64,000 nucleotides of DNA from Pseudeuparius sepicola (taxonomy: Eukaryota; Arthropoda; Insecta; Coleoptera; Anthribidae), in assembly GCA_963920635.1 (NCBI GenBank), contig OY987298.1, positions 128,659,735 to 128,723,734 of the forward strand, written 5' to 3'. Shown piece after piece: positions 1,788-45,067 of the stretch; position 1 is the stretch's first letter; the number at the start of each line of letters is the position of its first letter. The translations under genes and the position numbers were made by a program. A model generated the notes under the pieces. It saw only the letters and a list, made by a program, of their open reading frames with translations, was not told where the DNA came from and did not search any database.

Positions 1788-2609
1788 AATACTTTATTCG
1801 CCAAGCTCGTGTTTTTATATCAAAATCATTTTCAAATGTTCTGTATTATAGACCTAGTCGTTCGAGAAAAAAAGCATATTGATCTTTCCTAGACCTATTA
1901 TATACCTATATTCCGTTTTAAAATTAGCCATCATTTGTAAGGCTTTAATTCATTTTCTATATTATTTAAATTATTATACCTACTTACCTCCATTTTTGTA
2001 TATAGTTACAAATTGATCCATCTTTGTTAGTTATTGGAAATTTTGTTGAGTAAAACCTGTTCTCAATCTGCCTTAATACATAATTGGAAATTATTAGTAG
2101 ACACACCTATTACCTATGATCACAGACGTATATTATAGCTGAAGCTATAGGTCTGTGCTATGATGTATTGTGAGACTCCCTTCTAGAGCGTTTGTCTTAG
2201 GTGCAATGTGCAATAAAACTTATAGCTGCGATTCTAAATATTAGGTATTCAGCCAATTTCATATATTATGTACGAGTATAAGAATAAGAAGACTCATTTT
2301 GTTGATTTTGAAGTTAACCGTCGTGTACTACAACTATATTTCTTTAACTAATCGACATAAAATAACAAATAAATAGAAACTACAAACTGCCTGTAAAACT
2401 AAAGATCATATCATGATCATTGGTAAAACCTATTTTACAAATGGCACAAATTTATTAAAATTTTAAGAAGAAATGCATTTATAAAATTATTTCACAAAGT
2501 TGTTAAAAACTAAAAAATTATAAAAAAACTCAATATAGTTGTATGTATGTATACGTAGGTACAATACCCATAATTCAGTAACATAATTATGGTTTACACA
2601 TTACAAAAT
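1788..2609 (+). repeat. Tandem duplication, copy 1 (about 820 bp)
   Basis: This segment starts at ...ACTTTATTCGCCAAGCTC and is repeated in the same orientation directly downstream (landmark at 1792 and 2611, so a unit of about 819 bp). It carries one private insertion, the 37-bp palindrome at 2121-2157. It serves as the empty-site reference for two large insertions in copy 2. No coding potential is seen. Confidence 0.9.
2114..2164. mobile_element. Micro-palindromic insertion 1 (37 bp) with 7-bp TSD
   Basis: The insert is 2121-2157. It begins CACAGACGTATA and ends TATAGGTCTGTG, and an inner TAGCT/AGCTA stem makes it almost one complete hairpin. It is flanked by CTATGAT at 2114-2120 and 2158-2164. 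Copy 2 of the local tandem duplication has the uninterrupted site with a single CTATGAT at 5775-5781, so this is a real insertion and not a chance palindrome. Confidence 0.88.
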
Positions 2610-4179
2610 ACTTTATTCGCCAAGCTCGTGTTTTTTTATATCAAAATCATTTTCAAATGTTCTGTATATAGACCTAGTCGTTCGAGAAAAAAAGCATATT
2701 GATCTTTCCTAGACCTATTATGTACCTATATTCCGTTTTAAAAATTAGCCATCATCATTTTAATTCATTTTCTATATTATTTAAATTATTATGCCTACTT
2801 ACCTCCATTTTTGTATGTAGTTACAAATTGATCCATCTTTGTTAGTTATTGGAAATTTTGTTGAGTAAAACCTATTCTCAATCTGCCTTAATATACCGTG
2901 TGTCCCTCTTAAGGACTGACCACCCCTGTAAAATTTTTATTTATAGCTCGATTTTCAGAAACTTTTTTTTGTTGGATAGAGCTTTAAAAATGGCACTAAA
3001 TGCATAATTCATGTGACTCCTGCGTTAAGTTCATGGCTCACTGAGACGGTGTTTTAGTGCTGAAATTTCGAGAAGTACTATTAGGGATTTTTTTTAGAGG
3101 AAAATTAATACCGGATTCTTATTCAGCGTTGTTCGAAACCCAAACGTACCAATTTACATTACCTTAGCTCTACAGGGTGCTTCAAAAATTTTAATACCCC
3201 ACTTAAGGACTGGCCAACCCTGTAAAATTTTTATTTATAGTTCGATTTTCATAAACTTTTTTTTGTTGGATAGAGCTTCAAAAATGCCATTAAATGCATA
3301 ATTCAGGTGCCTCGTGCGTTAAATTCATGGCCCACCGAGACGGTGTTTTAGTGCTGAAATTTCGAGAAGTATTATTAGGGATTTTCTTAGAGGAAAATTA
3401 ATGCCGGATTCTTATTCAGCGTTGTTCGAAACCCAAACGTACCAATTTACATTACCTTAGCTCTACAGATTACTTCAAAAATTTTAATACCCCACTTAAG
3501 GACTGACCAACCCTGTAAAATTTTTATTTATAGTTCGATTTTCATAAACTTTTTTTTGTTGGATAGAGCTTCAAAAATGCCATTAAATGCATAATTCAGG
3601 TGCCTCGTGCGTTAAATTCGTGGCCCACCGAGACGGTGTTTTAGTGCTGAAATTTCGAGAAGTATTATTAGGGATTTTCTTAGATGAAAATTAATGCCGG
3701 ATTCTTATTTAGCGTTGTTCGAAACCCATGCTTACCAATTTGCATTACCATATCTTTACAGGGTGTTTCAAAATGTTCAATGCCCCACTTAAGGGGCTCG
3801 ATTTTCATAAACTTTTTTTTGTTGGATAGAGCTTTAATAATGGCATTAAATGCATAATTCAGGTGCCTCGTGCGATAAATTCATGGCCCACTGAGACTGT
3901 GTTTTAGTGCTGAAATTTCGAGAAGTACCATTAGGGATTTTTTACAGGAAAATTAATGCCGGATTCTTATTAAACGTTGTTGGAAACCCAAACGTACCAA
4001 TTTGTATTACAAAATGGAGGACTAATCGAAATGACTGAAATTTGAGTTTATCTTATGTTGTGTTGTTTGTTCATATAAATGGCAACGAAGACAAAATAAT
4101 AGTAATTGCCCCCCTCCTTCGCACAAGCATGTGGTTGCTTCTGGGGTACTCCTAGTTTGGAGTATTGTGAGCGTGAGAA

Positions 4180-4955
4180 TTATTATTATTATTATTATAT
4201 CGACTTAGCCAAAAGGCATTCGCACTCCCTCTCTGGGGAACATTCACTCAGATCCCGGGTATCCCGGATACCATAAGGATCTGGCTCCTGACGAGACCCT
4301 TGCCATGTTATCGGGCCTTAGGTGACATTGATGTTGTTGGACGTTCCTGGACTCCCCATGAATTTCCTGACGGTTCGGGCTGTCGCAAGTAGTACCGCTT
4401 TCTGCATGGACCTGTAAAGATTATCAGTTAGACCCAGCTCTTTGATGTTTCTCAGCAAACTCTTTGGTGTGACACCAGTTGTTGACACGATGATTGTAAT
4501 CGTCTGAACGTTGTCCATTTCCCATTGCCTACTAATTCGTTCTTCTAAGTCTCTGTACTTCGCGATCTTCTCGACTTGCTTCACACGCAGGTTGTTGTTG
4601 TTCGGGATGGCCACATCAATCAGAGTTGTCTTCCTAGAAATTTTATCAACTATTATAAGGTCCGGTCTGTTATGGGCAACTCGTTGATCTGTCAGAACTG
4701 TACGATCCCAGTACATCTTGTAGTTGCTGTTCTCAAGAACAGGCTCCGGTGTGTAGCTGTAATATGGGATCCTCTCTGCCTGCACAAGCAGAAGTTTTTC
4801 CGCCAGTTCCTGGTGCAAGATCTTGGCAACCGAATCGTGTCGTTCCTTATATTCCGTTGATGCGAACATCTGACATCCTCCTGTTATGTGCTGGATTGTT
4901 TCTGAAGTTGGGTACCCGTATCTGCATCTGTCATCCACTACCGATACATCTCCTA
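4180..4955 (-). mobile_element. 5'-truncated RLE-type non-LTR retrotransposon
   Basis: The 3' end, at low coordinates on the minus strand, finishes in an (AAT)n run at about 4180-4198. The 5' end breaks near 4955, where similarity to a coding frame stops. The remaining body encodes the zinc-finger plus restriction-like-endonuclease end of an ORF of the kind seen in R2/R4/Dong-like elements (family-level inference). It sits in the middle of the foldback element at 2896-5739, so it inserted after that element or was carried with it. Confidence 0.8.
4318..4938 (-). pseudogene. C-terminal endonuclease fragment of a non-LTR retrotransposon ORF
   Basis: The fragment has 206 codons, open at the 5' side (the first codon here is GTG, not a real start) and ending in a normal stop. 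Near the N-end is a degenerate zinc-knuckle-like run, CRYGYPTSETIQHITGGC, in which the usual second cysteine is G. Around residues 89-112 the frame reads HNRPDLII...LIDVAIP, matching the PD...D core of the restriction-like endonuclease found at the C-end of site-specific LINEs. In the family this domain nicks the target for target-primed reverse transcription. The reverse transcriptase is missing, so the copy is dead. Confidence 0.83.
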
Positions 4956-6127
4956 CAATGAATTTTAGGTATCATTATATTTGTCTATGTTAATAATTGA
5001 AAAACAATAATTTTGTTTTTTAATACATTTTTAAAAGAATATGATTTCCTCATGAATATTTTAGTGTAAAACATTACCAGAAATTAAGAAAATTAATTAC
5101 AAATTGTTAAGTTTTTGTTTCTAACATCTCACTGCGTATAAGAATCAGGCTTTACTTTTCCTTTTAAATTTTTTGGAACACCGTGTAGAGCTACGGTAAT
5201 GCAAATTGGTACGTTTCGGTTTACAAGAACGCCAAATAAGAATCCAGCATTAATTTTCCTATAAACGATCTCTAATAGTACTTCTCGAAATTTCAGCACT
5301 AAAACACCGTTTCACAATGGGCCACGAATTTAACGCACGAGGCACCTGAATTATGCATTTAATGCCATTTTTGAAGCTCTATCCAACAGAAAAAGAAGTT
5401 TATGAAAATCGAACTAAAAATAAAAATTTTACAGGGGTGATCAGTCCTTAAGTGGAGCACTAAAAATTTTGAAACACCCTGTAGAGCTACGGTAATGCAA
5501 ATTGGTAGGTCTGGGTTTCGAAAAACGCTGAATAAGACTCCGGTATTAATTTTCCTCTAAAAAATCCCTAATAGTACTTCTCGAAATTTCAGCATTAAAA
5601 CACCGTCTCAGTGGGCGAGGCACCTGAATTATGCATTTAATGCCATTTGTTAAGCTCTAACCAACAAAAAAAGTTTATGAAAATCGAGCTATAAATAAAA
5701 AATGTACAGGGGTGGTCAGTCCTTAAGTGGGACACACTGTATAATTGGAAATTATTAGTAGACACACCTATTACCTATGATGTATTGTGAGACTCCCTTC
5801 TAGAGCGTTGTCTTAGGTGCAATGTGCAATAAAACTTATAGCTGCGATTCGAAATATTAGGTATTCAGCCAATTTCATATATTATGTATAAGAATAAGAA
5901 GACTCATTTTGTTGATTTCGAAGTTAACCGTCGTGTACTACAACTATATTTCTTTAACTAATCGACATAAAATAACAAATAAATAGAAACTACAAACTGC
6001 CTGTAAAACTAAAGATCATGTAAAACCTATTTCACAAATAGCACAAATTTATTAAAATTGTAAGAAGAAATGCATTTATAAAATGATTTCACAAAGTTGT
6101 TAAAAACTAAAAAATTATAAAAACTCA

Positions 6128-6733
6128 AAATTTTTAAAAAATACTGTACTGTATCTCAATAATCACAGACCAAATTCGTTGCCTTGGTTACCAACTTTAT
6201 TGTTTAGCCTTCAAAAATCACAAATAAACTTGTCAGATTACTGTCACTGTCTAAGAATATTCTTTCTGCTCCAAAATTCACACAAAATCGCTTTTTAACC
6301 TTTCACTTCCCCCAGGCCCAATTCCCAGGGCTTATATATTCAAAAGGAAGACTGGAGAATAATCTAGAATATTCCTGGTCAATGACAGTTCACAAATCAT
6401 AAAGTTCTAGCAAACTTTCTAGAAAGTTATGGAAGCTCTACAGGGAAAACAATGAAAACTAAAGGAAAATGGGGGCCTCAGGCCTCAGGCCAACAAAGAT
6501 GTGACGGAAAATGCCTGCCTCTAAATTAATTACAAAAACTATAAAACTGTAAGTAGAATACCCAAACTTAAAATTTATCTGCTAAATCTTTGAGTAGGTT
6601 AGAAAACCGTGCAGACATATTTATTGAAAGCTGATATAATAACAACTTTAGAGGCATTTTTCGTTACAATACTATACGCTCTAAAATACACTCCTAGAAG
6701 AAATTAAATTTTAACTAAAAAATATAATTAAAC
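6128..6733. repeat. ~600-bp insertion in copy 2, includes a dispersed repeat
   Basis: This stretch is absent at the corresponding point of copy 1, where ACTCAA joins TATAGTTGTATG directly. Its part at about 6160-6325 is an inverted copy of 38100-38290; both contain GTAACCAAGG...ACAATAAA...TTCTTTC-type text and a GGGCCTGG block. This suggests a dispersed repeat of some 190 bp. The class is unknown; no ORF is seen. Confidence 0.65.
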
Positions 6734-6813
6734 TTATTTATAGTTGTATGTATGTATAGGTAGGTACAATACCCATAATTCAGTAACATAATTATGGTTT
6801 ACACATTACAAAA

Positions 6814-9273: not shown

Positions 9274-9275
9274 TA

Positions 9276-10053: not shown

Positions 10054-11345
10054 CAGTGTGTCCCGTTTTTCATGTTAACACCCCTGAAAATCTAAGTAGG
10101 CTGAAGGAATTGAACGGGGCAATTTTTTTATAGATATGTCCCTGAAAGGTCATCATTTGCGAAGTATTGGTTTGGCATTGCCGAGAAAGCCTGGCCTACT
10201 GCGATTTTTTAAAGGGGTGCGTTTTTCGAAAAACCATATTAAGCATTTTTTTATTTAAAATCTGACACCACAGCGTTAATCAGGGCACACCGAAACCCCC
10301 ATATACCAAATTTGAACAAAAAATATACAGGGAGTTCCATTCTGCAGGGTGTCAAAGTTGAGCAAAATAGGAATTTTAAAGGCATCTGGCGAGTCAAGTG
10401 TGCCATGGAATTACCTCAAAACAGTTGAATGGTCAATAGGACCACTGAAAGTGTTGCTGTGCAAGAATTCAATACACAAATATACAGGGTATTTTTCTCT
10501 GAGCCATCTCAAAATTCTGAAATTTTATGAAACTTCTACGGATCAAGAGTGCTCTGGAATCATTGAAAAAATATTGATAAACACAAAAGTAATGTATTTC
10601 TTTACAAAATGCCAACTAACAAATAAAAACAATTTAAAATATTGGAATTTTTCAACAAAGTCACTGTCTAAGATGATACATTTTCTGTGCGTTTCCTGTT
10701 GTGGCACACCAGCCACCTTAACTGATATGGACCATTGAGTAAAGGAATAAATTATTCCTTTACTCAATGTATGGACTTACTAACTGGCAGGCTTCTGTAT
10801 TTTTTAGATTTAGTTCATTTATAGTGTGTGGAGCGGTTTTGATATACTCGATTTTTGTCCCGTATAAAGTTCCAAAAATTCAGTATTTTGAGATGGCACG
10901 AATAAGAACACTCTGTATATTTTGTATTGGACCTTTGCACACCAACACCTTGAGTGGTACTATTGATCATTCAACTGTTTTGAGGTAATTCCATGGCACA
11001 CTTGACTCGCCAGATGCCTTTAAAATTTCTATTGTGCTCAACTTTGACACCCTGCAGAATGGAACTCCCTGTATATTTTTTGTTCAAATTTGGTATATGG
11101 GGTTTCGGTGTGCCCTGATTAACGCTGTGGTGGCAGATTTTAAATAAAAAAAATGCCTAATATGGTTTTTCGAAAAACGCACCCCTTTAAAAAATCGCAG
11201 TAGGCCAGGCTTTCGCGGCAATGCCAAACCAATACTTCGCAAATGATGACCTTTCAGGGACATATCTATAAAAAAATTGCCCCGTTCAATTCCTTCAGCC
11301 TACTTAGATTTTCAGGGGTGTTAACATGAAAAACGGGACACACTG
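10054..11345. mobile_element. Long foldback element, ends CAGTGTGTCCCG
   Basis: The two arms are each more than 480 bp: left from 10054 and right ending at 11345, flanked by TA at 10052-10053 and 11346-11347. The arms contain further CAGGG-type motifs (for example ACAGGGAGTTCC), as if elements had nested and been copied into both arms. A large internal part is shared with the element at 38641-39509. The loop holds a 37-bp palindromic micro-insertion. The apparent ORFs are by-products of the repeat. Confidence 0.9.
10726..10776. mobile_element. Micro-palindromic insertion 2 (37 bp) with 7-bp TSD
   Basis: The insert is 10733-10769. It is a perfect palindrome with 18-bp arms beginning CATTGAGTAAAGGAATAA, one central base, and the reverse arm ending CAATG. 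It is flanked by TATGGAC at 10726-10732 and 10770-10776. It sits in the loop of the foldback element at 10054-11345. A shorter relative with the same end sequence is at 36071-36101. Confidence 0.88.
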
Positions 11346-11350
11346 TATGC

Positions 11351-11427: not shown

Positions 11428-11429
11428 CC

Positions 11430-12420: not shown

Positions 12421-12456
12421 TTGGCGGCATAGCTTAAACTTAAGCTATGTTAGCGG
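12421..12456. mobile_element. Micro-palindromic insertion 3 (22 bp) with 7-bp TSD (6/7)
   Basis: The insert is 12428-12449, reading CATAGCTTAA, two bases, then TTAAGCTATG. It is flanked by TTGGCGG (12421-12427) and TTAGCGG (12450-12456), one mismatch in seven. Ends and duplication length agree with the other micro-palindromes in the window. Confidence 0.75.
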
Positions 12457-12467
12457 TTGGTCAGTAC

Positions 12468-13690: not shown

Positions 13691-13728
13691 GTAGTCTGCA
13701 CAGCTTATGATTTGAACAGTCAATCGAC

Positions 13729-14655
13729 ATGGAGAGAATCTTCAAGATCAGAACGAAAACAAACTCAGATCCCAGAGGACTGTATCCATCCGAACGAAGA
13801 TATTCATCTTCTATAGTGATAGGATTAAGTGTTGTGTTTTTCCAGTTGGGACTTTACTCCATTCTTATGGGATCGCTAATAATTCATAAGGTAAATCTGC
13901 ACCAAGCTCTTATTTCTGGTAGTGACAACTCAACCTTCACTGAAGACAATGCTACTGATAACGAAACCATTGTTGCTTCTACCGAAGATTCCTTAAGAAG
14001 ACTTGATGCTCTCCTCGACAAAGATTTAGCGGACAACGACAGCTATGAAATGCATTATTACATAGATATACCGGCTCTAGTTTGCGCAGGATGCTTTGTG
14101 ATGGCACTGGGAGACATCCTTTCGTCCGTTTCAGGTGCACTAGCCTGGAAAAGATGGTATATAGACCACAACATAACGTTCTTCTTCTTAACTTCAAGTT
14201 TCTCAACGCTGACGTCAACAATATGTTTGCTAATATCTCTTTTGACCACCTTCCACATGGATTTTTACAACTTCGAAAGATACATTGAAAACCCCGCGTA
14301 CAAATCTCCAATTACATTCAGCTTGGCAATGAATATAATCATTCTGTCCCTTGTGAGTTCCATTTGGTCATTTGTATCGACAAAAGTGGCATTCAGAGGG
14401 ATGAAAAACGAGTATCCAGACGATATAGAGTTAGGAAAGGGTGGAGGAACGGTGGCAGTAAGTGTCATAAGAAAGGGAAGCAAGCACGGCAGTATCTATC
14501 CACCAGAAATTATTAACAGCTATCACTTCGGCAAGTTGGCCAAATATTTACCAAAACAAGATAACAACAGCAATCTTCCTAATGAAGAAAGTAATGCAGA
14601 ATATGAACAAAGAGTGAATAAATTCTTAAACGGAGAAAATGCGCAAACAAAATAA
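13729..14655 (+). CDS. Four-pass transmembrane protein, family unknown (308 aa)
   Basis: A 308-residue frame with one of the best coding signals in the window. The exon begins after a splice acceptor at 13690, and the chosen ATG (CGACATGG, G at +4) is the first in it, so an upstream exon is probably only 5' UTR. Four hydrophobic segments lie at about residues 28-52, 113-137, 149-173 and 195-218. The first loop (53-112) is acidic and has four N-glycosylation sequons (N67, N74, N78, N103), which places it outside the cell and both tails inside. The C-tail (219-308) is polar, with a GKGGG turn near 236. There is no signal peptide and no enzyme motif. Tetraspan groups such as MARVEL or MS4A-like are possible, but I see no diagnostic motif; I do not recognise it. 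Confidence 0.82.
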   Translation: MERIFKIRTKTNSDPRGLYPSERRYSSSIVIGLSVVFFQLGLYSILMGSLIIHKVNLHQALISGSDNSTFTEDNATDNETIVASTEDSLRRLDALLDKDLADNDSYEMHYYIDIPALVCAGCFVMALGDILSSVSGALAWKRWYIDHNITFFFLTSSFSTLTSTICLLISLLTTFHMDFYNFERYIENPAYKSPITFSLAMNIIILSLVSSIWSFVSTKVAFRGMKNEYPDDIELGKGGGTVAVSVIRKGSKHGSIYPPEIINSYHFGKLAKYLPKQDNNSNLPNEESNAEYEQRVNKFLNGENAQTK

Positions 14656-17193: not shown

Positions 17194-19083
17194 CTGGAAA
17201 AAATATTTTCGTACGTTTTATTTATTAGAATGGTCCCGAAAGTAGACAATATTCGATAAATAATAATTCAAATGATTCCCCTAATTAAATTATAAAAAAT
17301 CCAATTTTAATAAGGTGTGAAAAGAATAAAACAACTTCTTGCTCTTTTCGTTTATAAGTAAGTTCAATAGCTGTACATATGACAAACACAATCCTAAAGA
17401 GTAAGGATAGAACATGAGAACTCTTTGAGCGAAGTCAAAGCACAGAGCCGTGTTTCATAAATTTTGAATATTAGAAGGCTAATCATTGTTCTTACCATTA
17501 TCATATCAAATGCAGTATCACAAATATTTGGAGATAAATCCTTGATAGTTTTCTTTCCTTGTATTTCAAAAGAATCCCATTTAATTGAGACTCTTTCTTC
17601 CGGCCACTCTTCCCGCGGTGGTTTTCCAAGAATTCTGTAAAACCCAAGGCAAATTAGTACTTTCTACATTTTGGATATACATCTAAATGACCATGAGAAG
17701 CAGAAGCAGCGGAGCAGTATTTTCAGTTTCCATAAGAATTGATGTAAGCAGTCGAATATTGACGAGTGATGATTGTTAAGTTTAGGTAGGTAACTAATTA
17801 ACTTTAGAAAATAATTTATTGTTTCTTAAAAGTACTTAGTCGGTGAATTACTAAGTCATTGGAGTAGGTACCATTATTGTTACTCACGAGAATATCTTGC
17901 TGAGTTGGTCGCCTTCTGAAGTTCCACTAAATACTGGTTTCAAAGTGTATAATTCCACCATAATGCAGCCTATAGACCAAATGTCGACAGGCGTTGCGTA
18001 TGATAATCCCAGTAGCACCTCTGGAGCTCTATACCATAAAGTTACTACCTGGAAGGTATAATTTATTTGCAGTAAAGTTTATTTATATTTACTATAAAAA
18101 ATGATTCCAAAAGAAATTTTGTCAATGTTTTCTCTCCTTTTTCTCACAACGAATGTATTTACTTCAATTCTTCATGACATTGCAATTATTGCAATCGATT
18201 AAATTGGTCATAATGACAATAATTGTAGGGGCGCTCTTAGATCTGGCTTACTTAAAAAATTTTGATGATATTTCTACCTAAATACGAAATTGTAACTTTT
18301 CAGAAGTATGCTCCAGGAAACGGTATTTATAAAATAATAATAATAAAATATTAACAAGAGAGCGACAACCAACTGAAAACTGCTGAGTACAATAATTAAG
18401 TGATGGTTATAAGAATATTTGTAATTTTTATGAGTATGCTACTTACCACTGACGTCAGTTTCATTTCGAAATCGTACGTTTTAGCTAGTCCAAAATCAGC
18501 TAACTTTACATGCCCGTCATAACTAACCAACAAATTCTGTGGTTTCAAATCCCTATGAACTATCCTATTGCTATGCAGAAAATCAACACCATTCAGAATC
18601 TCCCTGGACATGCTCCTTATCTGAATCGTGCTGAATCCTCTCGAGTGCTTTTCTATATACATTGCTAAGTCTTGTTCGACATGCTCAAACACCAAGAACA
18701 TCACCAGTTGGTTGGCAATCCTTTGGCCATAACAAATATCTAGTAGCTTTACTATATTTGGATGGTCATGGGTGTTGAGCTGTTTCAACAGTGCTATTTC
18801 ACGCACTGTATTCACCGGTATTCCATCATCTGTCACTGGTATGCAAACTTTTTTGAGAGCTACATCCTTCCCAGATTTCTTGTCTCTTGCTTTGTATACC
18901 GTGCCATAAGCTCCTAAAACACAATTGATAATATTACTTGACATAATCCAAAAATGTTGGATAAAGAACGGCAATTTAGCTAATTTAACTAATGGAATCT
19001 TTGTACAGTACCTATTTACACTAACCTCGTCCAATTTTACTTATTGGTTCGTAGACGCTGTTCTTGTCTTCGATTTGGGCCAT
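17104..19083 (-). CDS. Cdk4: Cyclin-dependent kinase 4/6 (five coding exons, 304 aa)
   Basis: The joined exons are 19083-19026, 18913-18447, 18048-17888, 17634-17496 and 17193-17104 on the minus strand: 915 nt, all GT-AG, frame kept throughout. The product has 304 residues, close to the ~303 of CDK4. Landmarks: glycine loop GRGAYGTV (18-25), ATP lysine K40 in VALKKV, PVNTVRE (52-58) in the place of the Cdk4/6 cyclin-contact helix [15 protein letters not shown] (139-146) with catalytic D141, DFG D159, T-loop T173 in [14 protein letters not shown], and a C-end at EEPINT. In the family this kinase binds cyclin D, phosphorylates Rb and drives G1 growth and division in the nucleus. The [11 protein letters not shown] run argues for Cdk4/6 over Cdk1/2. 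No defects seen. Confidence 0.95.
17496..17634 (-). CDS. Cdk4: Cdk4 coding exon 4 (139 nt)
   Basis: The acceptor is GTTTTACAG, the donor GTAAGA at 17495-17490. It completes the split serine ([16 protein letters not shown]) and runs to DTAFDMIM, a C-lobe segment typical of the kinase family (ILG.P...WP). Confidence 0.94.
17888..18048 (-). CDS. Cdk4: Cdk4 coding exon 3 (161 nt), APE motif and C-lobe
   Basis: The acceptor is CCTTCCAG, the donor GTGAGT at 17887-17882. It encodes [33 protein letters not shown] and [14 protein letters not shown]. The joined reading [14 protein letters not shown] across the exon 2/3 boundary confirms the splice. It ends two bases into a serine codon. Confidence 0.95.
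18447..18913 (-). CDS. Cdk4: Cdk4 coding exon 2 (467 nt), N-lobe to T-loop
   Basis: The acceptor is TTTTAG before 18913 and the donor is GTAAGT at 18446-18441. It encodes residues 20-175: rest of the glycine loop, K40, the PVNTVRE helix, the hinge [16 protein letters not shown] and DFGLA, ending at LTSV directly after T173. Confidence 0.95.
19026..19083 (-). CDS. Cdk4: Cdk4 coding exon 1 (58 nt)
   Basis: Encodes [19 protein letters not shown] plus the first base of the next glycine codon. The ATG context is CACAATGG. The donor is GTTAGT at 19025-19020, a little weaker than GTAAGT. The exon ends inside the glycine loop, which the next exon completes as G-AYGTV. Confidence 0.93.
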
Positions 19084-19110
19084 TGTGTAGTTTTCTCGTT
19101 TTCATTTATG

Positions 19111-20342: not shown

Positions 20343-20381
20343 CTACAGGCACAGAATAGCCACCCTATTCTGTGCTACAGG
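20343..20381. mobile_element. Micro-palindromic insertion 4 (25 bp) with 7-bp TSD
   Basis: The insert is 20350-20374: CACAGAATAG, five bases (CCACC), CTATTCTGTG. It is flanked by exact CTACAGG copies at 20343-20349 and 20375-20381. Confidence 0.88.
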
Positions 20382-32529: not shown

Positions 32530-32885
32530 AGGCGGCCAAAAACAGCCTTCAGCGCCCTCTGGCGGTCGGGCAAAAATGGTGGAGGTGGAAGCCCCATTAG
32601 AGGTCCAGCTTTATTTATATTTTATTTAGGAGGACTATAGCTTTCTATAGTCACTGCCCAAACGCCAAAGGCTTCATCTAACAACCTTTACCCCAACTCA
32701 ACCGCCAACTGTCCCATAACATAAAGCCAGTGACTATAGACATTTCTATAGTCACTGATAAAGCATAATGACTCCGTCTGACCTTGAAGGAGGAGAGGTT
32801 TTAGTGGGTATGCCCCCTCGGGGGTGACTCCCATTCGCGTGGTTCAATAAAGGATTTCCTCTCCTTCCATCCAAAACAAAAAAAA
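32530..32885 (+). mobile_element. 3' end of a non-LTR retrotransposon with A-rich tail
   Basis: GGAGAGGTTTTAGTGGGTATGCCCC near 32800-32820 resembles the text after the LINE reverse-transcriptase scrap at 62.9-63.0 kb, suggesting a shared 3' UTR. An AATAAA (32848-32853) and an A-rich end (AAAACAAAAAAAAG, 32874-32887) complete a typical retroposon 3' end. The 5' boundary is uncertain. A micro-palindrome has inserted within it. Confidence 0.55.
32721..32764. mobile_element. Micro-palindromic insertion 5 (30 bp) with 7-bp TSD
   Basis: The insert is 32728-32757: CAGTGACTATAG, six bases (ACATTT), CTATAGTCACTG, arms exact. It is flanked by ATAAAGC at 32721-32727 and 32758-32764. A related half-palindrome (GACTATAGCTTTCTATAGTC then ACTG) lies 90 bases upstream at about 32646-32669, without a visible duplication. 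Confidence 0.9.
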
Positions 32886-35908: not shown

Positions 35909-36997
35909 ACAATCTATAAACAAAAATGTCTAAAGCCAGCTCATGACATTTTAAACCTCCTCTCCAGATAGTTCACTAGTCCACACCTAATTGTTATAGC
36001 TAGGGGCAAAAGGGGGTCATCTTGGCAATCTTGGCATGGTTTTACTTGGGGTCTAACCACAATATGATTCCATTGAGTAAAGGAATAAATTTTACTCAAT
36101 GATGATACCTATTATAGGTATGGTATAACTACTTCAGTAACCGCACTCAATGCATTTCCTTTATTATCGATTTAGCAAACTACTCTTGAGTAAAATATAT
36201 ACAGGGTGGCTTATGTAAGTGGCTCACTCAAAATATTTGGCCGTTTTTGACAAAAAAAAATCTTTGGTGGGTGCGATCACTATTAGCCCTTTCGGGCGGT
36301 ATTCTTTTGTCGTAATAAGAGTTGCTGTCCATGACCACCTACGACAACTATGGGCAAAAATCTAAATCAAAAATTTTAAGCCGCTGGAACTTTTTAATTT
36401 TTTGACATACTGAAAAAAGCTTAACATGAAAATTGTTTGCAAGAAGTGACAGAATTTAAGTATGACATTAGTTTTGTTGTTTGGATTATCCTAAAATTTA
36501 GACCCTCTTGGGCTCGATAATTAAATTATTTGTGAAAATCTTTAATTATGTGTATTTTGTAAAGCATAATGTTTCATTCAATTTGATGTGTCAAAAACAA
36601 CAAAAATTTAAGAAAAAATATTTTTAATATTTGTGTTACCCACGGAATCAACTGTGCAATGATAGCGTTAAAACGTTATTAATGACATCCCCAATGAAAT
36701 TATTCATATGAGGTTACCTAAAAAGAAAAGTTTACTCAGCAGCTCCACAAAATGTAAGCAGCAGCGAAAATGCTATGAAGCTGAAAATATGAAGTGTTGA
36801 AGAATGTGGTGTTGTTATTTTGTTATTACAGTAGTGTGAAAGTAGGTGTAAATACGTACTGGGTGTTCTCCAAGCAATTATTGTAATAGTACCTACAACC
36901 TATAATATTTTGTTATTTTCATTTTTAAGATTATTGCTATGGCATTAGGTACACCTGATAAGTGTTACGTTAAATCAAAAATATTATATGTTTTTTA
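35909..36997 (+). repeat. Left arm of an inverted segmental duplication
   Basis: Starting at CAATCTATAAACAAAAATG, this segment is an inverted copy of 41970-42657. It includes ordinary flanking DNA (TTTTAAACCTCCTCTCCAG, GGGGTCATCTTGGCAATC), the end CAGGGTGGCTTATGTAAGTG of a TA-flanked element at 36202, and sequence up to GCATTAGGTAC near 36943-36953. It has about 400 bp (36480-36880) that the right arm lacks, and it stops at 36997 where another element begins. Confidence 0.85.
36064..36108. mobile_element. Micro-palindromic insertion 6 (31 bp) with 7-bp TSD (6/7)
   Basis: The insert is 36071-36101, begins CATTGAGTAAAGGAATAAA and ends TTTACTCAATG. It is a shorter relative of 10733-10769. Flanks are ATGATTC (36064-36070) and ATGATAC (36102-36108). 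The other arm of the inverted duplication lacks the insertion and shows a single ATGATAC (complement of 42474-42480), so the left flank carries the later substitution. Confidence 0.88.
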
Positions 36998-37077: not shown

Positions 37078-38084
37078 TATTTTATTCTACCCATGTTCCT
37101 CCACTTTCAGCACACATCTCAACTCTGTTCTTAAATTCTTTGTAGCTATTTTGAATGGCTTGAAGGTCAATTCAATTTATAGCATTTGTAATTTTAATGT
37201 TTTAAGAAGAGTAGGCATGTCATGGAAACAAAAATAAAAGTGATCCGTCTTTGTGTCAGAATAACTTATTGTCGGAGGAACACGGGTAGAATAAATTGTG
37301 TTTGTAATGCAAAAAAGTTGTCATATACACCTATAATACCGCTTTGCCGTGGACACATTATTGTATGTACCTAAAGGTAATATCACATTCTGTAGGTATT
37401 CGCATTCGCATACACCAGTTGCTGCACTACCCGGCTAATGGCTTGTTCTCGGCTAACAGAGGGCTTGGTTGTACCGTTGGCTCAAAGTCTATATATACGT
37501 AGAGTTTGACTTTGCCGTTGACTAATATTTCAGTCAACGGCAGTCAATTGTTTGTTGCAGATTGTGTCCGACAGAGATGGGCCCGACACGGCTCTGAGTA
37601 TTATTACCTGAGGTAGAATAGCCTCAAGCCTCAAGCAAAGTAGCAGCAGTTGATAGGTAGTTGTTTCATCGTCGATGGGGGCTTCCTCAATCAACGGTTT
37701 CATTGAGTACAAGATATAGGCAAAGTCTAGAGAATAAGAGAATACTATTATCTCTGGACGCTGATATAGGTATAGCGTTGACTGAAGGTTTAAAGAGAAT
37801 CTACGCCCATGGAACAGCGTGCCGATTTAAAAACATCTCCGGAGCCCGCTGGCACCCTCTACATTCCGGACCAGAAATTAAAGCGGATCGATATCGAAAA
37901 TCTTCTGGCATCTTCGCCGGAGCCATCTTGGGGCTAGCGGAAGTAACAATTATTCACAGTCGGTGTCGCTGACTCGAAAGCAAAGTCTAGAAAACAGCAC
38001 ACTGTTTTCTGGGGTATACTGGGATAGCTCGGTGGGAATTACAGATGGGACATTTCGAGTCTGGCAATATCTTGATTTTGACTT
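37078..38084. other. Region of unknown nature, higher GC, holds a micro-palindrome
   Basis: From about 37.4 to 38.1 kb the DNA is less AT-rich than its neighbours. It has a CTATATATACGTAG TATA-like string at 37489-37502 and hairpins such as CCGTTGACT...AGTCAACGG (37515-37537). A frame at 37661-37972 (103 codons) and a shorter one from 37809 (MEQRADLKTSPEPAG...) are open but not recognisable. A leader region of an LTR or other retroelement is one guess; nothing confirms it. Confidence 0.35.
37714..37770. mobile_element. Micro-palindromic insertion 7 (43 bp) with 7-bp TSD
   Basis: The insert is 37721-37763, begins CAAAGTCTAGAGAATAA and ends TCTCTGGACGCTG. The palindrome is imperfect (AGAGA..AATA / TATT..TCTCT still pair). 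It is flanked by exact ATATAGG at 37714-37720 and 37764-37770. It shares its left end with 40473-40498 and is the most diverged of the set. Confidence 0.78.
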
Positions 38085-38640: not shown

Positions 38641-39509
38641 CAGTGTGTCCAACTTTAAAACTGTACAAATCCGTAAAATCTTCATTTTTGGAGACAATCG
38701 CCCAAACTTTTTTTTGTTTGAAAGGCCTTCAAAAAGCGCTTCTTTTGACCGTCCCGTCATTTTCAAAATGCAAATCCAGGGCCGGCTGCGATTTTTTTAT
38801 ACCCTCGATTTTCACGAAAACCATTTAGCGATTTTTTTATTTAAAATCTGACCCCACAGCATTAATCAGAACACCCAAAAACCCCTTTACACCAAATTTG
38901 AATAAAAAATATACAGGGAGTTCCAATCTGCAGGGTGTCAAAGTTGAGCAAAATAGGCCTTTTAAAGGTATCTGCCAAGTCAAGATTGCCATGGAATCCC
39001 GTCAAAACAGTTCAATGGTCTATAGGACCACTCAAGGTATTGGTGTGCAAAGGTCCAATACAAAATATACAGAGTATTCTTATCTGTGCCATCTCAAAAT
39101 GCTGAATTTTTATGAAACTTTATATGGGTCATGAGTGCTGTAGAATCATTGAAAAAATATTGATAAACACAAAAGTAATGTATTTCTTTTAAAATTCCTA
39201 TTTTGCTCAAATTTGACACCCTGCAGAATAGAACTCCCTGTATATTTTTTATTCAAATTTGGTATATAGGGGTTTTGGGGTGTTCTGATTAATGCTGTGC
39301 GGACAGATTTTAAATAAAAAAATCGCTAAATGGTTTTCGAGAAAATTGGGGGTATAAAAAAATGGTAGCCGGCCCTGGATTTGCATTTTGAAAATAGGAA
39401 GGTCAAAAGAAGCGGTTTTTGAAGGCCTTTCAAACAAAAAAAGTTTAGGCGATTATCTCTAAAAATGAAGATTTTGCGGATTTCTACAGTTTTAAAGTTG
39501 GACACCCTG
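38641..39509. mobile_element. TA-flanked foldback element, ends CAGTGTGTCCAAC
   Basis: The left end is CAGTGTGTCCAACTTTAAAA and the right end TTTTAAAGTTGGACACCCTG, with TA at 38639-38640 and 39510-39511. Inner parts (ATACAGGGAGTTCC, GGGTGTCAAAGTTGAGCAAAAT) are shared with the element at 10054-11345, although the outer ends differ. No transposase. Confidence 0.88.
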
Positions 39510-39511
39510 TA

Positions 39512-41343
39512 TAATAATTGTATATGCGTTAAAATGTTCTTACTTATATAATTTATTTATGTTGACAATATTTCTGGATTTGGTATTTAGGTATTTTTTT
39601 AATAAATGTGTTTTCTCATTTAACTATTTTATTTTATTCCTCTCTGTCAAAAAATGTTCAAAGGTAATTCTGAATGAAAATGGGTAATTACTTTCTGGCG
39701 TGTTCAGTCAATACCTACTTAAAAAATCTCAATTCCTACATGTAGGTACATACATAGTCAACAGTTTAAAAAATCCTTATTTACCTACTTTTACTATTTT
39801 TGTTTATATCACTAATAAAAGTAGCATTTCATAAAACAGTGCTAGTTTTTTTTATTAAGAAATTCATTTTCGTCAATGTAATTTGAGCAAAAACTGCAAA
39901 TTAAACAGTTATAGAGGGCAGGCCGTTACCTTGATTTAACTATAGAGAAAAATCAAACGGCAGAACATAAAAAACATGATCACGTAAATTCAACAAAAGT
40001 GTCTACTTAAAACTGAACTTAGCACTTAGCAGCCAATTTTCTAGGAGCCAAAAATTTCAACGTTTATTTTTTGATGAATATTTTTCTTCATTCTCCGGTT
40101 TAATCTGCTTAGAAGGTTTAATAATAGTTACCCTTTCTACTTTATTTTTATCAAAATAAATTTGTGGAAATAAGGGCGAGGAAAATTTTTTGCTGCCAGA
40201 AAATCGGCTACTAACTTTACACCGGTTTAGTTAGGCACATTGATTTTTAAATGTCTTCCGATATTTGGCCCCGCCTGTTTAAGTTTAAATAGTTACGAGC
40301 CGCCACTGATTAAGTGGTGTGGTATCATAGTTTGGCAGATATAAGCAATAATATCGTTTTAACAATGGCAGGCATTGTCCTAGCTAGCTAGCTTTTAAAA
40401 TTGAGGGTACAGTTTACTCCGGCCTTGTTTTTTTCGACAAAAATACACCCTGTATACACTGTGTACTGATAGCAAAGTCTAGTATTCTCTAGACTTTGCT
40501 GATAGGTTCTTCCAATTATTGGGGCAACACCAAACAGAATGTCAACTTACAATTAGAATTTTTTTATCGTTTACACCCCTTGGGCACTGAATCGCCGGAC
40601 ACACAGTATATATTTTTATTAGTTACTTAAGCTAAAAAAATGAAAATAAATAACAACCTCTTTCTGTATTCAACATTTTTCCAGAAAAACGCCTAGGTAC
40701 ATTAAAAAATACTCCCTAATAGAGGGAAGGCAATCAGTTTTTTCACTTTTCTCAAAGTTTTCATTTTGGACATATGTTTTGTTTTTCAAATCAACGTAAG
40801 AAATTGAAGCAACATAATGTAGATCACTATATCCTAAAAAAGAGAATTTTAAAAATCTGCCAATCCGTTAAAATCGTCAAATATCAAACTGAAATACGCC
40901 CAACCCTGAATCTATTCCTAATTTTATAAAAGCCAAATCGTAGAATTGTTTCACTGGCCCCTTCTCCCTTCTCCCCCCATGTCTATTTTTAGACTTGTTT
41001 GCCCCGCCCCGAACACAAACGAGCCTTTTGGAATACGAAATTGTCGAGTACGAAATCTACCACTAATTATCGATTTTGTTAGAGTCATTGTAATTATCGA
41101 AAATAGATGGTGCTAAACAGTAGTACTGGACGAGAGCTAAATAGAAATAATAATACCGCTATACACCAGTAGATGGAGTTGGTGCGCGGAGGCGAATGAC
41201 TACGATCATTGGAAAAAGTTCGAATATCCATAGTCCTTCGCCTCCAAAAGCGCTCGGCATTTTATCTGGATCCGTGAGAGGTCTTTTTAAACCTTCTTTA
41301 AATCTTCACCCAACGGGTATAGTCTAACTCTATATAGAATACA
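39512..41343. other. Intergenic DNA with hairpins and an orphan hAT-like end
   Basis: No exon supported. GAGCCGCCACTG at 40298-40309 looks like the right end of a hAT element (CAGTGGCGGCTC) without a visible partner. A 20-bp-arm imperfect hairpin with GGAGGCGAA / TTCGCCTCC outer ends lies at 41189-41248. A CACCCTGTA string at 40446-40454 is another isolated end. Confidence 0.5.
40466..40505. mobile_element. Micro-palindromic insertion 8 (26 bp) with 7-bp TSD
   Basis: The insert is 40473-40498: CAAAGTCTAG, six bases (TATTCT), CTAGACTTTG. It is flanked by exact CTGATAG at 40466-40472 and 40499-40505. It shares ten terminal bases with the insertion at 37721. Confidence 0.9.
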
Positions 41344-42385
41344 CAGGGTGGATATGCTTACTCAAATCTCGGCTATCTATTGACAGAAAAATCGGTGGCC
41401 AGTGCGATAGAAGGCACTTCTTGGCGGCCTTCTTTTGTCATAATGAAAGTTGCTGCCATGGCCACGGCCACCTACGAAATTTATGGCTAAAAATAAAAAA
41501 ACAAATTTTTTAGACCGCTTTAACTTTTTTATTTCTAAAGGTAGGTACACAAAAAGGTTTAACACAAAAAATTGTTTGCATGAACTGTCAGAATCCAAAT
41601 ATTAAATCAGTTTTGAAATATTCGATATGACAAATTTTGAGCTCCCTTGGGATAAAAAATTAAATTATCTGGAAAAAATTTAATGATGCATTTATACACT
41701 TAATTACCAGTTTGTTCTGTATTTACTATAAAAATCTGAGAAAAATTATTAATAAAATTTGTGATTGACATAAGATCTAGTTACTCATGGAAATAAATAA
41801 TACCATATGACGTTAAATTAAAGTAGACATAGTAAAAGTGGTTCACATGCACTTAATCGAATGTCGAATAGGTAATCGAGAATTGTTATTTTAAATAATA
41901 AAAAAAATACTAAACACTCGTTGGCATTTTTATATTTTATGAAAATGAATTAAAAACATACAATATTTTTGATTTAACGTAACACTTATCAGGTACCTAA
42001 TGCCATAGCAATAATGTTAAAAATGAAAATAACAAAATATTGTAGGTACTATTATAACTACTATTGTAGGTACTATTGTAGGTACTATTATAACTATTAA
42101 TAATAATTTAATTTTCAATGTCACACTTAAATTCTGTCAGTTCTTGCAAACAATTTTCATGTTAAGCTTTTTTCCGTATGTCAAAAAATAAAAAAGTACC
42201 AGCGGCTTAAAATTTTTTAATTTTTTAGATTTTTGCCCATAGTTTTCGTAGGTGGTCATGGACAGCAACTCTTATTACGACAGAAGAAGACCGCCCGAAA
42301 GGGCTATCGATCGCACCCACCAAAGATTTTTTCTGTCAAAAACAGCCGAAATATTTTGAGTGAGCCACTTACATAAGCCACCCTG
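41344..42385. mobile_element. CAGGGTGG-ended foldback element
   Basis: The left half (41344 to about 41700) and right half (about 41970-42385) are inverted, diverged copies; both carry GTGCGAT..., GGCCACCTACG and TGTTTGCA/TGCAAACA blocks. The right end ACATAAGCCACCCTG is followed by TA. The right half is part of the right arm of the inverted duplication, while the left half has no equivalent past 36997. Confidence 0.75.
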
Positions 42386-42657
42386 TATATTTTTTACTCA
42401 AGATTAGTTTGCTAAATCGAGAATAAAGGATTGGCATTGAGTGTGGTTACTGAAGTAGGTATACCATACTTAGGTATCATACTGTGGTTACCTATAGCCC
42501 AAGTAAAACCATGCCAAGATTGCCAAGATGACCCCCTTTTGCCCCTAGCTAGAACAAAAAGGTGAGGACTAGTGGACTATCTGGAGAGGAGGTTTAAAAT
42601 GGAGAGGAAGGTATAAAATGTCATGAGCTGGCTTTAGACATTTTTGTTTATAGATTG
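41970..42657 (-). repeat. Right arm of the inverted segmental duplication
   Basis: An inverted counterpart of 35909-36997, extending outside the element end at 42385 into plain DNA (AAACCATGCCAAGATTGCC, GGAGAGGAGGTTTAAAAT) and ending at CATTTTTGTTTATAGATTG. Arms are collinear apart from the 400-bp difference and the micro-palindrome in the left arm. Confidence 0.85.
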
Positions 42658-43909
42658 CTAAAATTACTCTCTGTTGATTTTTTCCTGTACACCACTTCCC
42701 TTAGACGTTTGAAAAAATTTAGCTCTAATTAATTGAATTTGTGTAACTCCCGGCTAAGTACGGTGCAACAGACCAAGCGATTATTTGTACATTGTCATTG
42801 TCACTATGAAAGACGATCCGATGATCATGATCGTCTTTGCTTAAATGTGCTTAAACCTTATACATATTATCACATATTATACACATGTATAAGGGTTTAC
42901 GTCGCGAGCTCTTATAGACTACAGGGCGTTTAAAAAATAATATATAGCACTCTAGCGCTGAAAGAACATCAAAACATAATACAAAAAAGTTCATATTTAG
43001 ATGGAGTCGAAAACGCATATCTAAAATGATACAGGTTGTCAAAATATACATTTGATTTTAATTTTTTTTTAAGAAATTTTGTACTTAGCTGTTTTTTTTG
43101 GGACAAGGAATGCTAGTATTGGCATAGCTTTGATGTGATTTTATAGGGCATTTGTCTTGATTTGAAACATCGTAATTTTTTATGTGTAGGTATATTCGTT
43201 TTTCTGACGTAAAGCTCGCATTCATTCAGAGTGGGGTTTGACTATAAGACAAACAACAGTAATTAAACGCTTTCAATTGAATTGTTTGTTATTTAATAAA
43301 TCATTTTTCATTGATTTATCAGTTTTGTCAATATACAAAATAAGAAATTAGCCAATAATATTTATTATTGCTTGTATGGTCCCCGTTCTACATACCTACC
43401 TACCTACCTACCGTCTAGTGAATCAGTCCCATTTCCTTAAAATTATATTATATAGGCGAATAAATTAGAAAAATGTCGGCAGTCTCAATATTCGCATACG
43501 TGTACCTATTAAAAGAATGGATTTTTTCAATTTTCCATGCAGCCATTGTCTCGACTCTCGAAAGCGTATCGCACTGGTGAGGGGACGCCATACGCCTTCT
43601 TTTTGAAGGCAGCGTGGACTTGAAGAAGCAGCGTCGTACACACCACACAGGAATTTATACACATATTCTATGGATGATATAATAGGCCTAGCGAAATAAA
43701 ACGAATATTTCAGCAACCGAAACTTCTTAAATTAATCAAATTAATTTTCTTAGTTAAAACGGTTAGAACTAGCACCGCTCTTGCGGTATCTAGGGGTTCA
43801 GTCTTGTTTTGTTAGAAAGTGATTTGTGTCATATTAATATTTTTTTCAGATAGGGGTCTCGGCAAGAGCTAACAACTTATTTTTGACTTAAGTAAAGTAC
43901 TTACCTCTT
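42658..43909. other. Intergenic, nothing recognised
   Basis: No exon supported. A hairpin AAAGACGATC...GATCGTCTTT lies at 42808-42837, and a (TACC)n run at about 43388-43406. Confidence 0.5.
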
Positions 43910-44290
43910 CTGTACTCGATATCGAAAAATATCAGTACGAAAAATTATTCAGAAAATAAAACTAAGCCCTTGTGTGAAATATGAAGGCAACTGGCAATAC
44001 TGGCATACTTTGATTTTTGTGATTTTTGAAGCGTTTGTTTAGGTAAAGTGCTTTTTGCGAAAAATATATCTTATAAGTAAGAACATGTTTTTCAGGATTA
44101 CATAATATTATGTCCATATATCAGATTTAAAAACATGCGACCACTTTAATTTTTTGGTTTTCGTAAAAGCACTTTAACGCTTGCATCACAAAATCAAAGT
44201 AGGGCAATTATTTTCAAATTTCACACAGGTACCTAATTGTATATTCTGAATAACTTTTCCTAATGAAACTTCTCGATATCTTTTACAGTT
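43910..44290. mobile_element. Foldback element around TACTCGATATCG
   Basis: Inverted arms: TACTCGATATCGAAAAATAT and CCTTGTGTGAAATATGAA on the left; TTCAAATTTCACACAGG and TTCTCGATATC on the right; with inner TACTTTGATTTT / AAAATCAAAGTA. About 380 bp, no ORF, target duplication unresolved. Confidence 0.68.
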
Positions 44291-45032
44291 TTAGGTGCTG
44301 TCAATACATACTTGGTTTCTGAAAATTAAAAATGTGTTTTAAATTAAGTGAAGTCCATCCGTGTACACACTGTATAAGCTTCACTCTTATTGTTTACTTT
44401 TAAAATATAAAGTGGACTACTACCATTTTGAAAGTTTTTGAATAGGTCTAGTTACGCCTCTGGAAAATACTCGATATTGATATGTAAAATATTATGGTAA
44501 GTAACTTTCTTTGTCACAGGAGAAAGTGAAATCTATATTCATTGCAACTTGATAATAACTTCTTATTATAATTTGTTTATTGTTTATTGTTTATTTTAAT
44601 TAAGAAATGAAAATGCTTTATGAAGAATAAACTATTAGACCGAGAGTTAAGTTAATGTATTTTTTGTTTATCCCGTTGTTTCACTATAAGGCCAAATTTC
44701 ATTGTTTATTATAAACATACAAGTTCCTTTAATTTCAAAGGAAACATTAGTTTGATTATGAAACTTTTCAGTGTAAAATCTCTAGTCAAATTTTCTTTAC
44801 CAGTATACGCGACTGAATTTAAGATGCCAACGCCCCGACGGGACTATGCGAACTAATATCTGGGCCATCGTCACCATGGGAACGGTGCTAGCCACCAGGT
44901 ATACACTGCGTTGTTCTTTGTTGTTGTTTTTTGTTGTTGTTCATTGTTGTCAGGGCCCATAGAGGCATAGACTATAATTTAGCATTGAGCCTTCCTTGAG
45001 CCTATAGGGGGCGTATTTCTTATATTCAATGG
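44291..45032. other. Intergenic, nothing recognised
   Basis: AT-rich, with GTT-rich low complexity at about 44913-44950. No gene seen. Confidence 0.5.
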
Positions 45033-45067
45033 CCAATAGCACAGATGTTATCAATCTGTGCCAATAG
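45033..45067. mobile_element. Micro-palindromic insertion 9 (21 bp) with 7-bp TSD
   Basis: The insert is 45040-45060: CACAGAT, seven bases (GTTATCA), ATCTGTG. It is flanked by exact CCAATAG at 45033-45039 and 45061-45067. It is the shortest of the set and lies 150 bases downstream of the tRNA-Pro gene. Confidence 0.85.

What the first reader, a model, noticed from the sequence alone, without database searches (positions are those of the whole stretch)
2114..45067. Nine dispersed 21-43-bp palindromic insertions with CANWG...CWNTG ends and 7-bp target duplications
Inserts at 2121-2157, 10733-10769, 12428-12449, 20350-20374, 32728-32757, 36071-36101, 37721-37763, 40473-40498 and 45040-45060 are each little more than two arms of a palindrome. 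Every one starts CANWG (CACAG, CATTG, CATAG, CACAG, CAGTG, CATTG, CAAAG, CAAAG, CACAG) and ends in the complement. Each is bounded by a 7-bp direct repeat, exact in seven and 6/7 in two. A given 7-mer match has chance probability 4^-7, so nine is far beyond coincidence. Interiors differ, yet ends, size and duplication length agree. Target 7-mers lean to Y at position 2 and R at position 6. Too small to carry anything but ends, they could be minimal substrates of a transposase, or relics of its internal deletion. hAT and P make 8-bp duplications and Transib 5, so 7 is unusual. I know of no described family of this form.
Basis: seen in the sequence. Interest (0 to 1): 0.95.

Follow-up and report, generated by a model that had tools for sequence, protein, structure and literature searches.

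The report
P-transposon excision scars in beetle genome
The tiny palindromes are most likely scars left where P-element-like jumping genes inserted and later cut themselves out of a beetle genome, leaving only the tips of the element and the duplicated target behind, and they are common across the genome.

Summary
In detail: nine palindromes of 21-43 bp with CANWG-type ends and 7-bp flanking repeats, plus a tenth at 57001-57032. In 264 kb, exact flanking repeats of such palindromes were 7 bp in 12 cases and 8 bp in one; 30 shuffles gave none of 7 bp. Repeat copies without the insert carry a single target 7-mer.

They are probably not a new minimal transposon. In the CATTGAG family the arms are the outer ~10-25 bp of long elements. 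Two such elements (12.6 and 13.9 kb, recognised by paired ends) have exact 7-bp duplications. One encodes a P-type transposase (PF12017, PF21787, PF21788, PF21789; matches PDB 6p5a), broken by two in-frame stops. Genome-wide there are 1556 short palindromes of this family and 1291 of a second (reversed controls 0); of 50 listed for each, 31 and 38 are distinct. Retained ends reach at most 20 nt in 46 of 50. That fits a transposase that cuts inside its inverted repeat, followed by end joining.

Galileo (P superfamily) also makes 7-bp duplications, and its GTANTAC target resembles the motif here. New are scale and host. Source elements of the other window families were not identified.

The parts
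2114..2164 (.). scar 2121-2157 (CACAGAC family, 37 bp) with CTATGAT duplicated on both sides
   Evidence: empty copy with a single CTATGAT at window 5730-5830
5730..5853 (+). empty-site copy of the repeat that carries the 2121 scar
10726..10776 (.). scar 10733-10769 (CATTGAG family, 37 bp, commonest junction) with TATGGAC duplicated
   Evidence: empty copy in L018 with single TACGGAC
12421..12456 (.). scar 12428-12449 (CATAGCTTAA arms) with TTGGCGG/TTAGCGG (6/7)
   Evidence: source element not found
20343..20381 (.). scar 20350-20374 (CACAGAATAG arms) with CTACAGG duplicated
   Evidence: source element not found
32721..32764 (.). scar 32728-32757 (CAGTGACTATAG family) with ATAAAGC duplicated
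   Evidence: same family in L017:6874-6898 with GTACTAG duplicated; source element not found
36064..36108 (.). scar 36071-36101 (CATTGAG family, 31 bp) with ATGATTC/ATGATAC (6/7)
   Evidence: identical junction at L037; empty copy with single ATGATAC at window 42406-42557, minus strand
42406..42557 (-). empty-site copy of the repeat that carries the 36071 scar
37714..37770 (.). scar 37721-37763 (CAAAGTCTAG family, imperfect arms) with ATATAGG duplicated
   Evidence: source element not found
40466..40505 (.). scar 40473-40498 (CAAAGTCTAG family) with CTGATAG duplicated
   Evidence: source element not found
45033..45067 (.). scar 45040-45060 (CACAGAT arms, 21 bp) with CCAATAG duplicated
   Evidence: source element not found
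   Evidence: lies in a repeat also present in L045, where the palindrome at 106-137 has an exact CTTCAAA duplication

Best explanation
The palindromes are excision footprints (donor-site scars) of several families of P-superfamily DNA transposons that, like Galileo, duplicate 7 bp of target. An element inserts and duplicates a 7-mer that fits nTWNWAn (shown: TSDs, empty sites, target motif). Its transposase later cuts at the outer end on one strand and roughly 20 nt inside the element on the other (inferred by analogy with the 17-nt stagger of the Drosophila P element and from the cap on retained length). The flanks then keep long single-stranded tips of the element. End joining anneals 0-2 nt or adds filler and seals them (inferred from the junctions). 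What remains is 7-mer, tip, inverted tip, 7-mer: a palindrome of roughly 20-45 bp. Shown for the CATTGAG family down to a transposase-encoding element; inferred by analogy for the other families in the window.
For: (1) 7-bp specificity and shuffles. (2) Empty sites with one 7-mer. (3) Two long CATTGAG elements, recognised by a left and a right end in facing orientation with the same 7-mer outside each: C1:12106857-12119432 (ATTGTAC) and C1:10228621-10242533 (GGTAGAG). (4) The second holds a P transposase between its ends: PF12017 9e-9, PF21787 8.1e-26, PF21788 2.4e-19, PF21789 2.4e-7; PDB 6p5a/6pe2 P transposase E = 8.5e-16. (5) 1556 and 1291 short palindromes genome-wide for two families, reversed-pattern control 0; the listings show no flanks, but of 23 two-armed CATTGAG palindromes read with flanks, 20 have exact 7-bp repeats and one has 6/7. 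(6) Junction spectrum: 31 distinct of 50 and 38 distinct of 50. In the first set 22 of 50 joins have 1-2 nt microhomology, 15 are blunt and 13 have filler (later point changes would also count as filler); the longer retained end is at most 20 nt in 46 of 50. (7) Some scars keep bases found at only one end of the full element (ATAG, ATAGGG, ATAGGGG after the 18-bp repeat; L043, L024, L025), so that tip came from such an element. (8) Target motif T at TSD position 2 in 31 of 37 and A at position 6 in 29 of 37, as in Galileo GTANTAC (PMC4168063, passages). (9) P cleavage 17 nt inside the repeat, and repair by homologous recombination or end joining (PMC7776569, passages). (10) 150 of 150 scored candidates (of 1302) pass the PF21787 cut-off in this genome, with open frames up to 866 aa. 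(11) No two-ended CATTGAG element between 58 bp and full length in the held loci, apart from two duplicated scars in L050 read as one span.
Against: The retained-length cap is about 20 nt, not 17; four of 50 exceed 20 (21, probably by a chance base, and 22, 24, 25), so a P-like 17-nt stagger does not fit exactly. Pattern searches require 9-11-bp arms, so shorter scars are missed and the spectrum is cut from below. The 50 listed places are not all independent: at least one pair is a local duplication (L050), and three places with one identical palindrome lie within or near long elements. Source elements were not found for the other families in the window. 2 of 23 two-armed CATTGAG palindromes have no recognisable 7-bp repeat (L022, L049), and neither has L014:7104-7141. 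No allele pair (element in one genome, scar in another) was available. The transposase copy read here has two in-frame stops. Only 5.5 kb of the interior and about 1.5 kb at each end of the 13.9-kb element were read.
Confidence: 0.9

Rival explanations
1. The short palindromes are themselves mobile: miniature elements of about 20-40 bp that the P-type transposase moves as units and that create fresh 7-bp duplications.
For: The commonest junction (37 bp) occurs at 8 of 50 listed places, with different TSDs wherever flanks were read (L021, L023, L032, L033, L042, L048, window 10733). TSDs are nearly always intact.
Against: 31 of 50 and 38 of 50 junctions are distinct. A complex filler junction recurs in L050 only as a copy 695 bp away with the same TSD, as expected for a local duplication. 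The 37-bp form is the join expected from 2-nt annealing of nearly full tips. In Drosophila P, THAP binding sites lie further in, at bp 53-63 and 41-51 (PMC3688188, passage read), so a 37-bp piece would lack them.
Confidence: 0.06
2. They are internal-deletion derivatives made by interrupted gap repair after excision, in which the two ends were copied back only for a few bases.
For: Gap repair is an accepted route for P-type elements; a passage of PMC4168063 brings non-autonomous copies made of TIRs and a spacer together with inefficient gap repair.
Against: It predicts a broad range of retained lengths. Of 31 ends selected by a 19-mer with no upper length limit, none had a partner end between 44 bp and 1.5 kb away except the duplicated scars of L050. 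Retained ends are at most 20 nt in 46 of 50, though that pattern allowed only up to 48 bp in all.
Confidence: 0.08
3. Chance palindromes or slipped hairpin mutations unrelated to transposition.
For: AT-rich genome with many short palindromes; flanking-repeat lengths other than 7 do occur around palindromes with other ends.
Against: 0 in 30 shuffles; for CA ends only 7-bp repeats are in excess; empty sites; reversed-pattern controls 0.
Confidence: 0.005

Closest known systems
Galileo (P superfamily, Drosophila)
   Same: 7-bp TSD (mostly; three 8-bp copies in D. willistoni) with consensus GTANTAC over six species; palindromic target motif reaching beyond the TSD; P-type transposase; internal tandem repeats in the ends of long elements (PMC2775673, PMC4168063, PMC3688188, and PMC4079207 for the tandem repeats: passages read).
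   Different: Galileo TIRs are 0.5-1.2 kb; here the shared end of the CATTGAG family is 18-19 bp, followed by different left and right sequence with ~121-bp tandem arrays. The target motif is weaker at TSD positions 1 and 7. Excision scars were not mentioned in the Galileo passages I read.
Drosophila P element and repair of its donor site
   Same: Cut-and-paste transposition, transposase with the same domains, cleavage inside the inverted repeat, end joining as one repair route of the donor break (PMC7776569, passages read).
   Different: P makes 8-bp TSDs, has 31-bp TIRs and a 17-nt stagger. Here 7 bp, 18-19 bp, and retained tips mostly up to 20 nt.
1360 (hoppel)
   Same: Named with P and Galileo as a P-superfamily member (PMC4168063, PMC3688188, passages). 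A 7-bp TSD for it is recalled, not read.
   Different: Not compared by sequence here.
MITEs
   Same: Short, non-coding, inverted repeats, TSDs, high copy number.
   Different: MITEs are homogeneous mobile units, usually longer (recalled; the abstract of PMC6850418 in the listing calls them structurally homogeneous); these differ at the centre from place to place and are 21-57 bp.

Membership tests
P-superfamily transposon (source element, CATTGAG family) | Transposase with P-type HTH, split RNase H and GTP-binding insertion domain | tested here: met
   PF12017, PF21787, PF21788 above cut-off, PF21789 above cut-off, PDB 6p5a E = 8.5e-16
P-superfamily transposon (source element, CATTGAG family) | N-terminal THAP domain | not tested
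   The stretch upstream of L051:1443 on the coding strand was not scanned for it
P-superfamily transposon (source element, CATTGAG family) | TIRs flanked by 7- or 8-bp TSDs | tested here: met
   Two long elements with exact 7-bp TSDs
P-superfamily transposon (source element, CATTGAG family) | Palindromic target motif extending beyond the TSD | tested here: met
   T at TSD2 31/37, A at TSD6 29/37; outside the TSD, symmetrised frequency 0.66 for T three bases before it and for A three bases after it. The 37 sites are exact-TSD scars of all families, 37721 and the two long elements; the duplicated scar of L050 is counted twice
P-type excision footprint (the window palindromes) | Both TSD copies kept around truncated element tips with site-specific junctions | tested here: met
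   element tips identified as such only for the CATTGAG family
P-type excision footprint (the window palindromes) | Tips no longer than the 17-nt stagger of Drosophila P | tested here: not met
   Longer retained tip 19-20 nt in 27 of 50, above 20 in 4 of 50; met only if the stagger of this clade is about 20 nt. For this reason they are claimed as P-superfamily footprints, not as footprints of the canonical P element
P-type excision footprint (the window palindromes) | Full element seen at the same locus in another chromosome or individual | not testable with these tools
   Only one genome held
Window families other than CATTGAG as P elements | Full-length source with P transposase and same ends | not tested
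   Source elements not located; counts for two of these families did not complete. 1291 palindromes of the CACAGACCTAT family counted
hAT, Mutator, Transib | TSD of 8, 9-11 and 5 bp (recalled; Tetris, assigned to Mutator by its authors, 8-10 bp in PMC4079207) | tested here: not met
   7 bp is the length in excess; the transposase of the CATTGAG family is P-type
MITE | Homogeneous mobile units | tested here: not met
   31 distinct of 50 and 38 distinct of 50

The most novel reading that the evidence does not exclude
The commonest scar forms (the 37-bp CATTGAG palindrome, 8 of 50; the 39-bp CACAGACC palindrome, 5 of 50) have themselves become substrates and spread with fresh 7-bp duplications, which would make them among the smallest mobile DNA units known.
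Probability: 0.06. Interest if true: 0.85.

Novelty: new member of a known kind. Interest (0 to 1): 0.5.

Why it matters
P-type excision and its repair are known mostly from Drosophila (recalled). Here a 769-Mb beetle genome holds 2847 short palindromes of two families alone (1556 + 1291). The 200-kb sample extrapolates to roughly 23,000 TSD-flanked ones of all families (6 in 200 kb; my Poisson range about 8,500-50,000; a rough figure from fixed positions). Such scars count past excisions, mark past insertion sites, and form a natural library of end-joining outcomes with known starting ends. They also suggest that this 7-bp branch cuts about 20 nt inside its ends rather than 17, which can be tested biochemically. 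For annotation, palindromes of this kind should be read as scars, not as a new transposon family.

Tried and rejected
Rejected: an undescribed minimal transposon family, because for one family long elements with the same ends exist and one encodes a P transposase. Rejected: hAT, Mutator and Transib, by TSD length and transposase. Rejected: chance, by shuffles and empty sites. Tried without result: ORFs in L003 next to a divergent CATCGAG end gave no transposase-like frame by eye and were not scanned. A scan for elements up to 6 kb in the 264 kb found only short palindromes (11 hits, the longest 57 bp); the 12-14 kb elements were beyond its reach. Paper searches on P-element footprints (no paper; three listed; four listed) gave, by their titles, no paper on genome-wide P footprints in the open library; one search listed ten papers, by their titles on other transposons or organisms. 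That is not proof that none is in print. Not obtained: copy numbers of full CATTGAG elements, palindrome counts for the CAGTGACTATAG and CAAAGTCTAG families, and the ends of other transposase families.
Full report
Setting. The window lies at C1:128659735-128723734 of a 769-Mb genome in 16 contigs. The best named protein matches of the window ORF 13729-14655 are beetles (Anoplophora glabripennis 60%, Leptinotarsa decemlineata 55%), so the host is probably a beetle of the Chrysomeloidea; its name is not given.

Observation. All nine inserts are real and placed correctly. One small error: 37721-37763 ends CGCTG, which is not the complement of CAAAG. In 264 kb (window plus 20 x 10 kb taken at fixed places), 73 CANNG palindromes of 16-80 bp passed an arm filter. 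Exact flanking repeats were 7 bp in 12 cases and 8 bp in one, with none of 4, 5, 6, 9, 10 or 11 bp. With one mismatch allowed there were 15 of 7 bp, 5 of 4 bp, 1 of 8 and 1 of 9. Thirty Markov shuffles (mean 38.8 candidates) gave none of 7 bp, even with one mismatch. A scan without an end motif shows no peak at 7 for other ends: of 14 cases with a longest repeat of 7 bp, 12 had CA ends. The signal is not confined to the window: 6 of the 12 lie in the 200-kb sample. The window, with ten cases in 64 kb (two looser cases, 37721 and 57001, among them), is denser than the sample.

Insertion. Copies of the surrounding repeats without the palindrome carry one 7-mer only. For 2121-2157 the empty copy is in the window itself (5730-5830, CTATGAT once). 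For 10733-10769 it is in L018 (TACGGAC once, one base different), and for 36071-36101 in the window at 42406-42557 (ATGATAC once). Three further cases outside the window that I aligned agree (L036, L027, L038).

Same family, many junctions. The 19-mer CATTGAGTAAAGGAATAAA occurs 1114 + 1164 times (up to 1 mismatch; reversed control 0). In the 30 loci fetched it is found 31 times. Twenty-three are two-armed palindromes, of which 20 have exact 7-bp repeats, one has 6/7 (L045), and two have none (L022, L049). Five are ends of long elements (L034, L039, L040, L046, L047), and three have the second arm missing or cut short (L031, L035, L041). No partner end was found within 1.5 kb of these eight, and the only two-ended spans above 43 bp in all held sequence were the 57-bp scar of L015 and a false span across the two duplicated scars of L050. 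The gapped pattern CATTGAGTA-N0-30-TACTCAATG occurs at 1556 places, reversed control 0; flanks were not printed. Of the 50 places listed, 31 junctions are distinct. The longer retained end is at most 20 nt in 46 of 50. By my count from the printed table, 22 joins show 1-2 nt of microhomology, 15 are blunt, and 13 have filler. A second family, CACAGACCTAT-N0-30-ATAGGTCTGTG, occurs at 1291 places, reversed control 0, with 38 distinct junctions of 50 listed. The pattern arms set a lower limit, and the gap an upper limit, on what is counted.

Source element. Left and right ends of long elements pair up by place, orientation and duplication. One is C1:12106857-12119432 (12,576 bp, ATTGTAC on both sides), the other C1:10228621-10242533 (13,913 bp, GGTAGAG on both sides). 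L034 is a further left end without a known partner. The ends share 18-19 bp and then differ, and both sides carry arrays of about 121-bp repeats. I read 5.5 kb of the interior of the second element. It encodes a P-type transposase on the strand that runs from left to right end. L051:832-1443 has PF12017 and L051:1-831 has PF21787 and PF21788. L051:1-831 matches the solved Drosophila P transposase at E = 8.5e-16. L052:955-1500 has PF21789; the next frame, L052:484-954, has no Pfam match. The closest database protein is from Callosobruchus chinensis, 50% identical. This copy has two in-frame stops (L051:832-834 and L052:955-957), so it is probably dead. It also carries a scar of its own family, with ACTAAAC on both sides. 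The genome holds many P-type transposases: all 150 scored of 1302 candidates pass the cut-off, and many frames are open; none of 14 control genomes matched.

Mechanism. Shown: insertion with 7-bp duplication, shared ends with an element that holds a P transposase, variable centres, duplications intact in 20 of 23. Inferred: the cut inside the repeat and repair by end joining. The Drosophila P transposase cuts 17 nt inside its 31-bp repeats and leaves 17-nt 3' extensions, and the donor break is repaired by homologous recombination or end joining (PMC7776569, passages). Sealing such ends leaves both duplications and two inverted tips, which is the observed form. The 37-bp form equals 20 nt of the left end plus 19 nt of the right end sharing 2 nt. 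The cap near 20 nt, with cases at 22, 24 and 25, points to a stagger longer than 17 in this branch, or to some variation. Scars that keep ATAG, ATAGGG or ATAGGGG beyond the 18-bp repeat (L043, L024, L025) show that the tip came from a left end like that of the known elements.

Comparison. Galileo makes 7-bp TSDs with GTAGTAC in D. buzzatii, GTANTAC over six species and GTATTAC in D. willistoni (three copies there have 8 bp), with a palindromic target motif beyond the TSD (PMC2775673; PMC4168063; passages read). Here T at position 2 and A at position 6 dominate (31/37 and 29/37), and one scar has GTAGTAC itself (L012:8698-8730). The statement that 7 bp is foreign to P is therefore not right. 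That P excisions leave parts of the repeats is established knowledge (recalled; the word footprint does not occur in that review).

Limits. One genome only, and no allele comparison. Families other than CATTGAG were not traced to a source element. Several planned counts could not be run because the genome search was mostly unavailable. The genome-wide total of about 23,000 is a rough extrapolation from six cases.

Noticed in passing
L034, L039, L040, L046, L047 (ends of long elements): The long P-type elements carry arrays of about 121-bp tandem repeats that begin about 450-1000 bp in from the ends; Galileo and Tetris ends also hold tandem repeats (PMC4079207, passages).
   Followed up: partly
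L052:247-275 (C1:10233246-10233274): A scar of the CATTGAG family lies inside a long element of the same family with ACTAAAC on both sides. One identical palindrome lies inside or near three long copies (C1:8002227, 10240172, 12111768), so a scar may have been amplified with its carrier.
   Followed up: partly
window 32633-32656: A CAGTGACTATAG palindrome with one outer end and its duplication missing, 72 bp from the intact scar at 32728: possibly a scar with a resected end.
   Followed up: no
L014:7104-7141: A CACAGACCTATATAG palindrome without a 7-bp repeat on its flanks.
   Followed up: no
window 47256-47420: A dense cluster of inverted repeats built on TCGACTTATAA / TTATAAGTCGA, which looks unrelated to the scars.
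   Followed up: no
G000, PF21787 matches: 49 of the 150 listed transposase matches share exactly 118.7 bits, 24 of them with a 313-aa frame, none with stops inside the match: probably a recently amplified P-type family with a short open frame.
   Followed up: no
window 18396-19034, minus strand: Exon-like frame with a protein kinase domain (PF00069, 1.7e-38); looks CDK4/6-like by eye.
   Followed up: partly
window 56688-56791: A longer inverted repeat with perfect arms (ACCTTTTAAAACAATTGCCGACG...): a separate foldback-like repeat.
   Followed up: no
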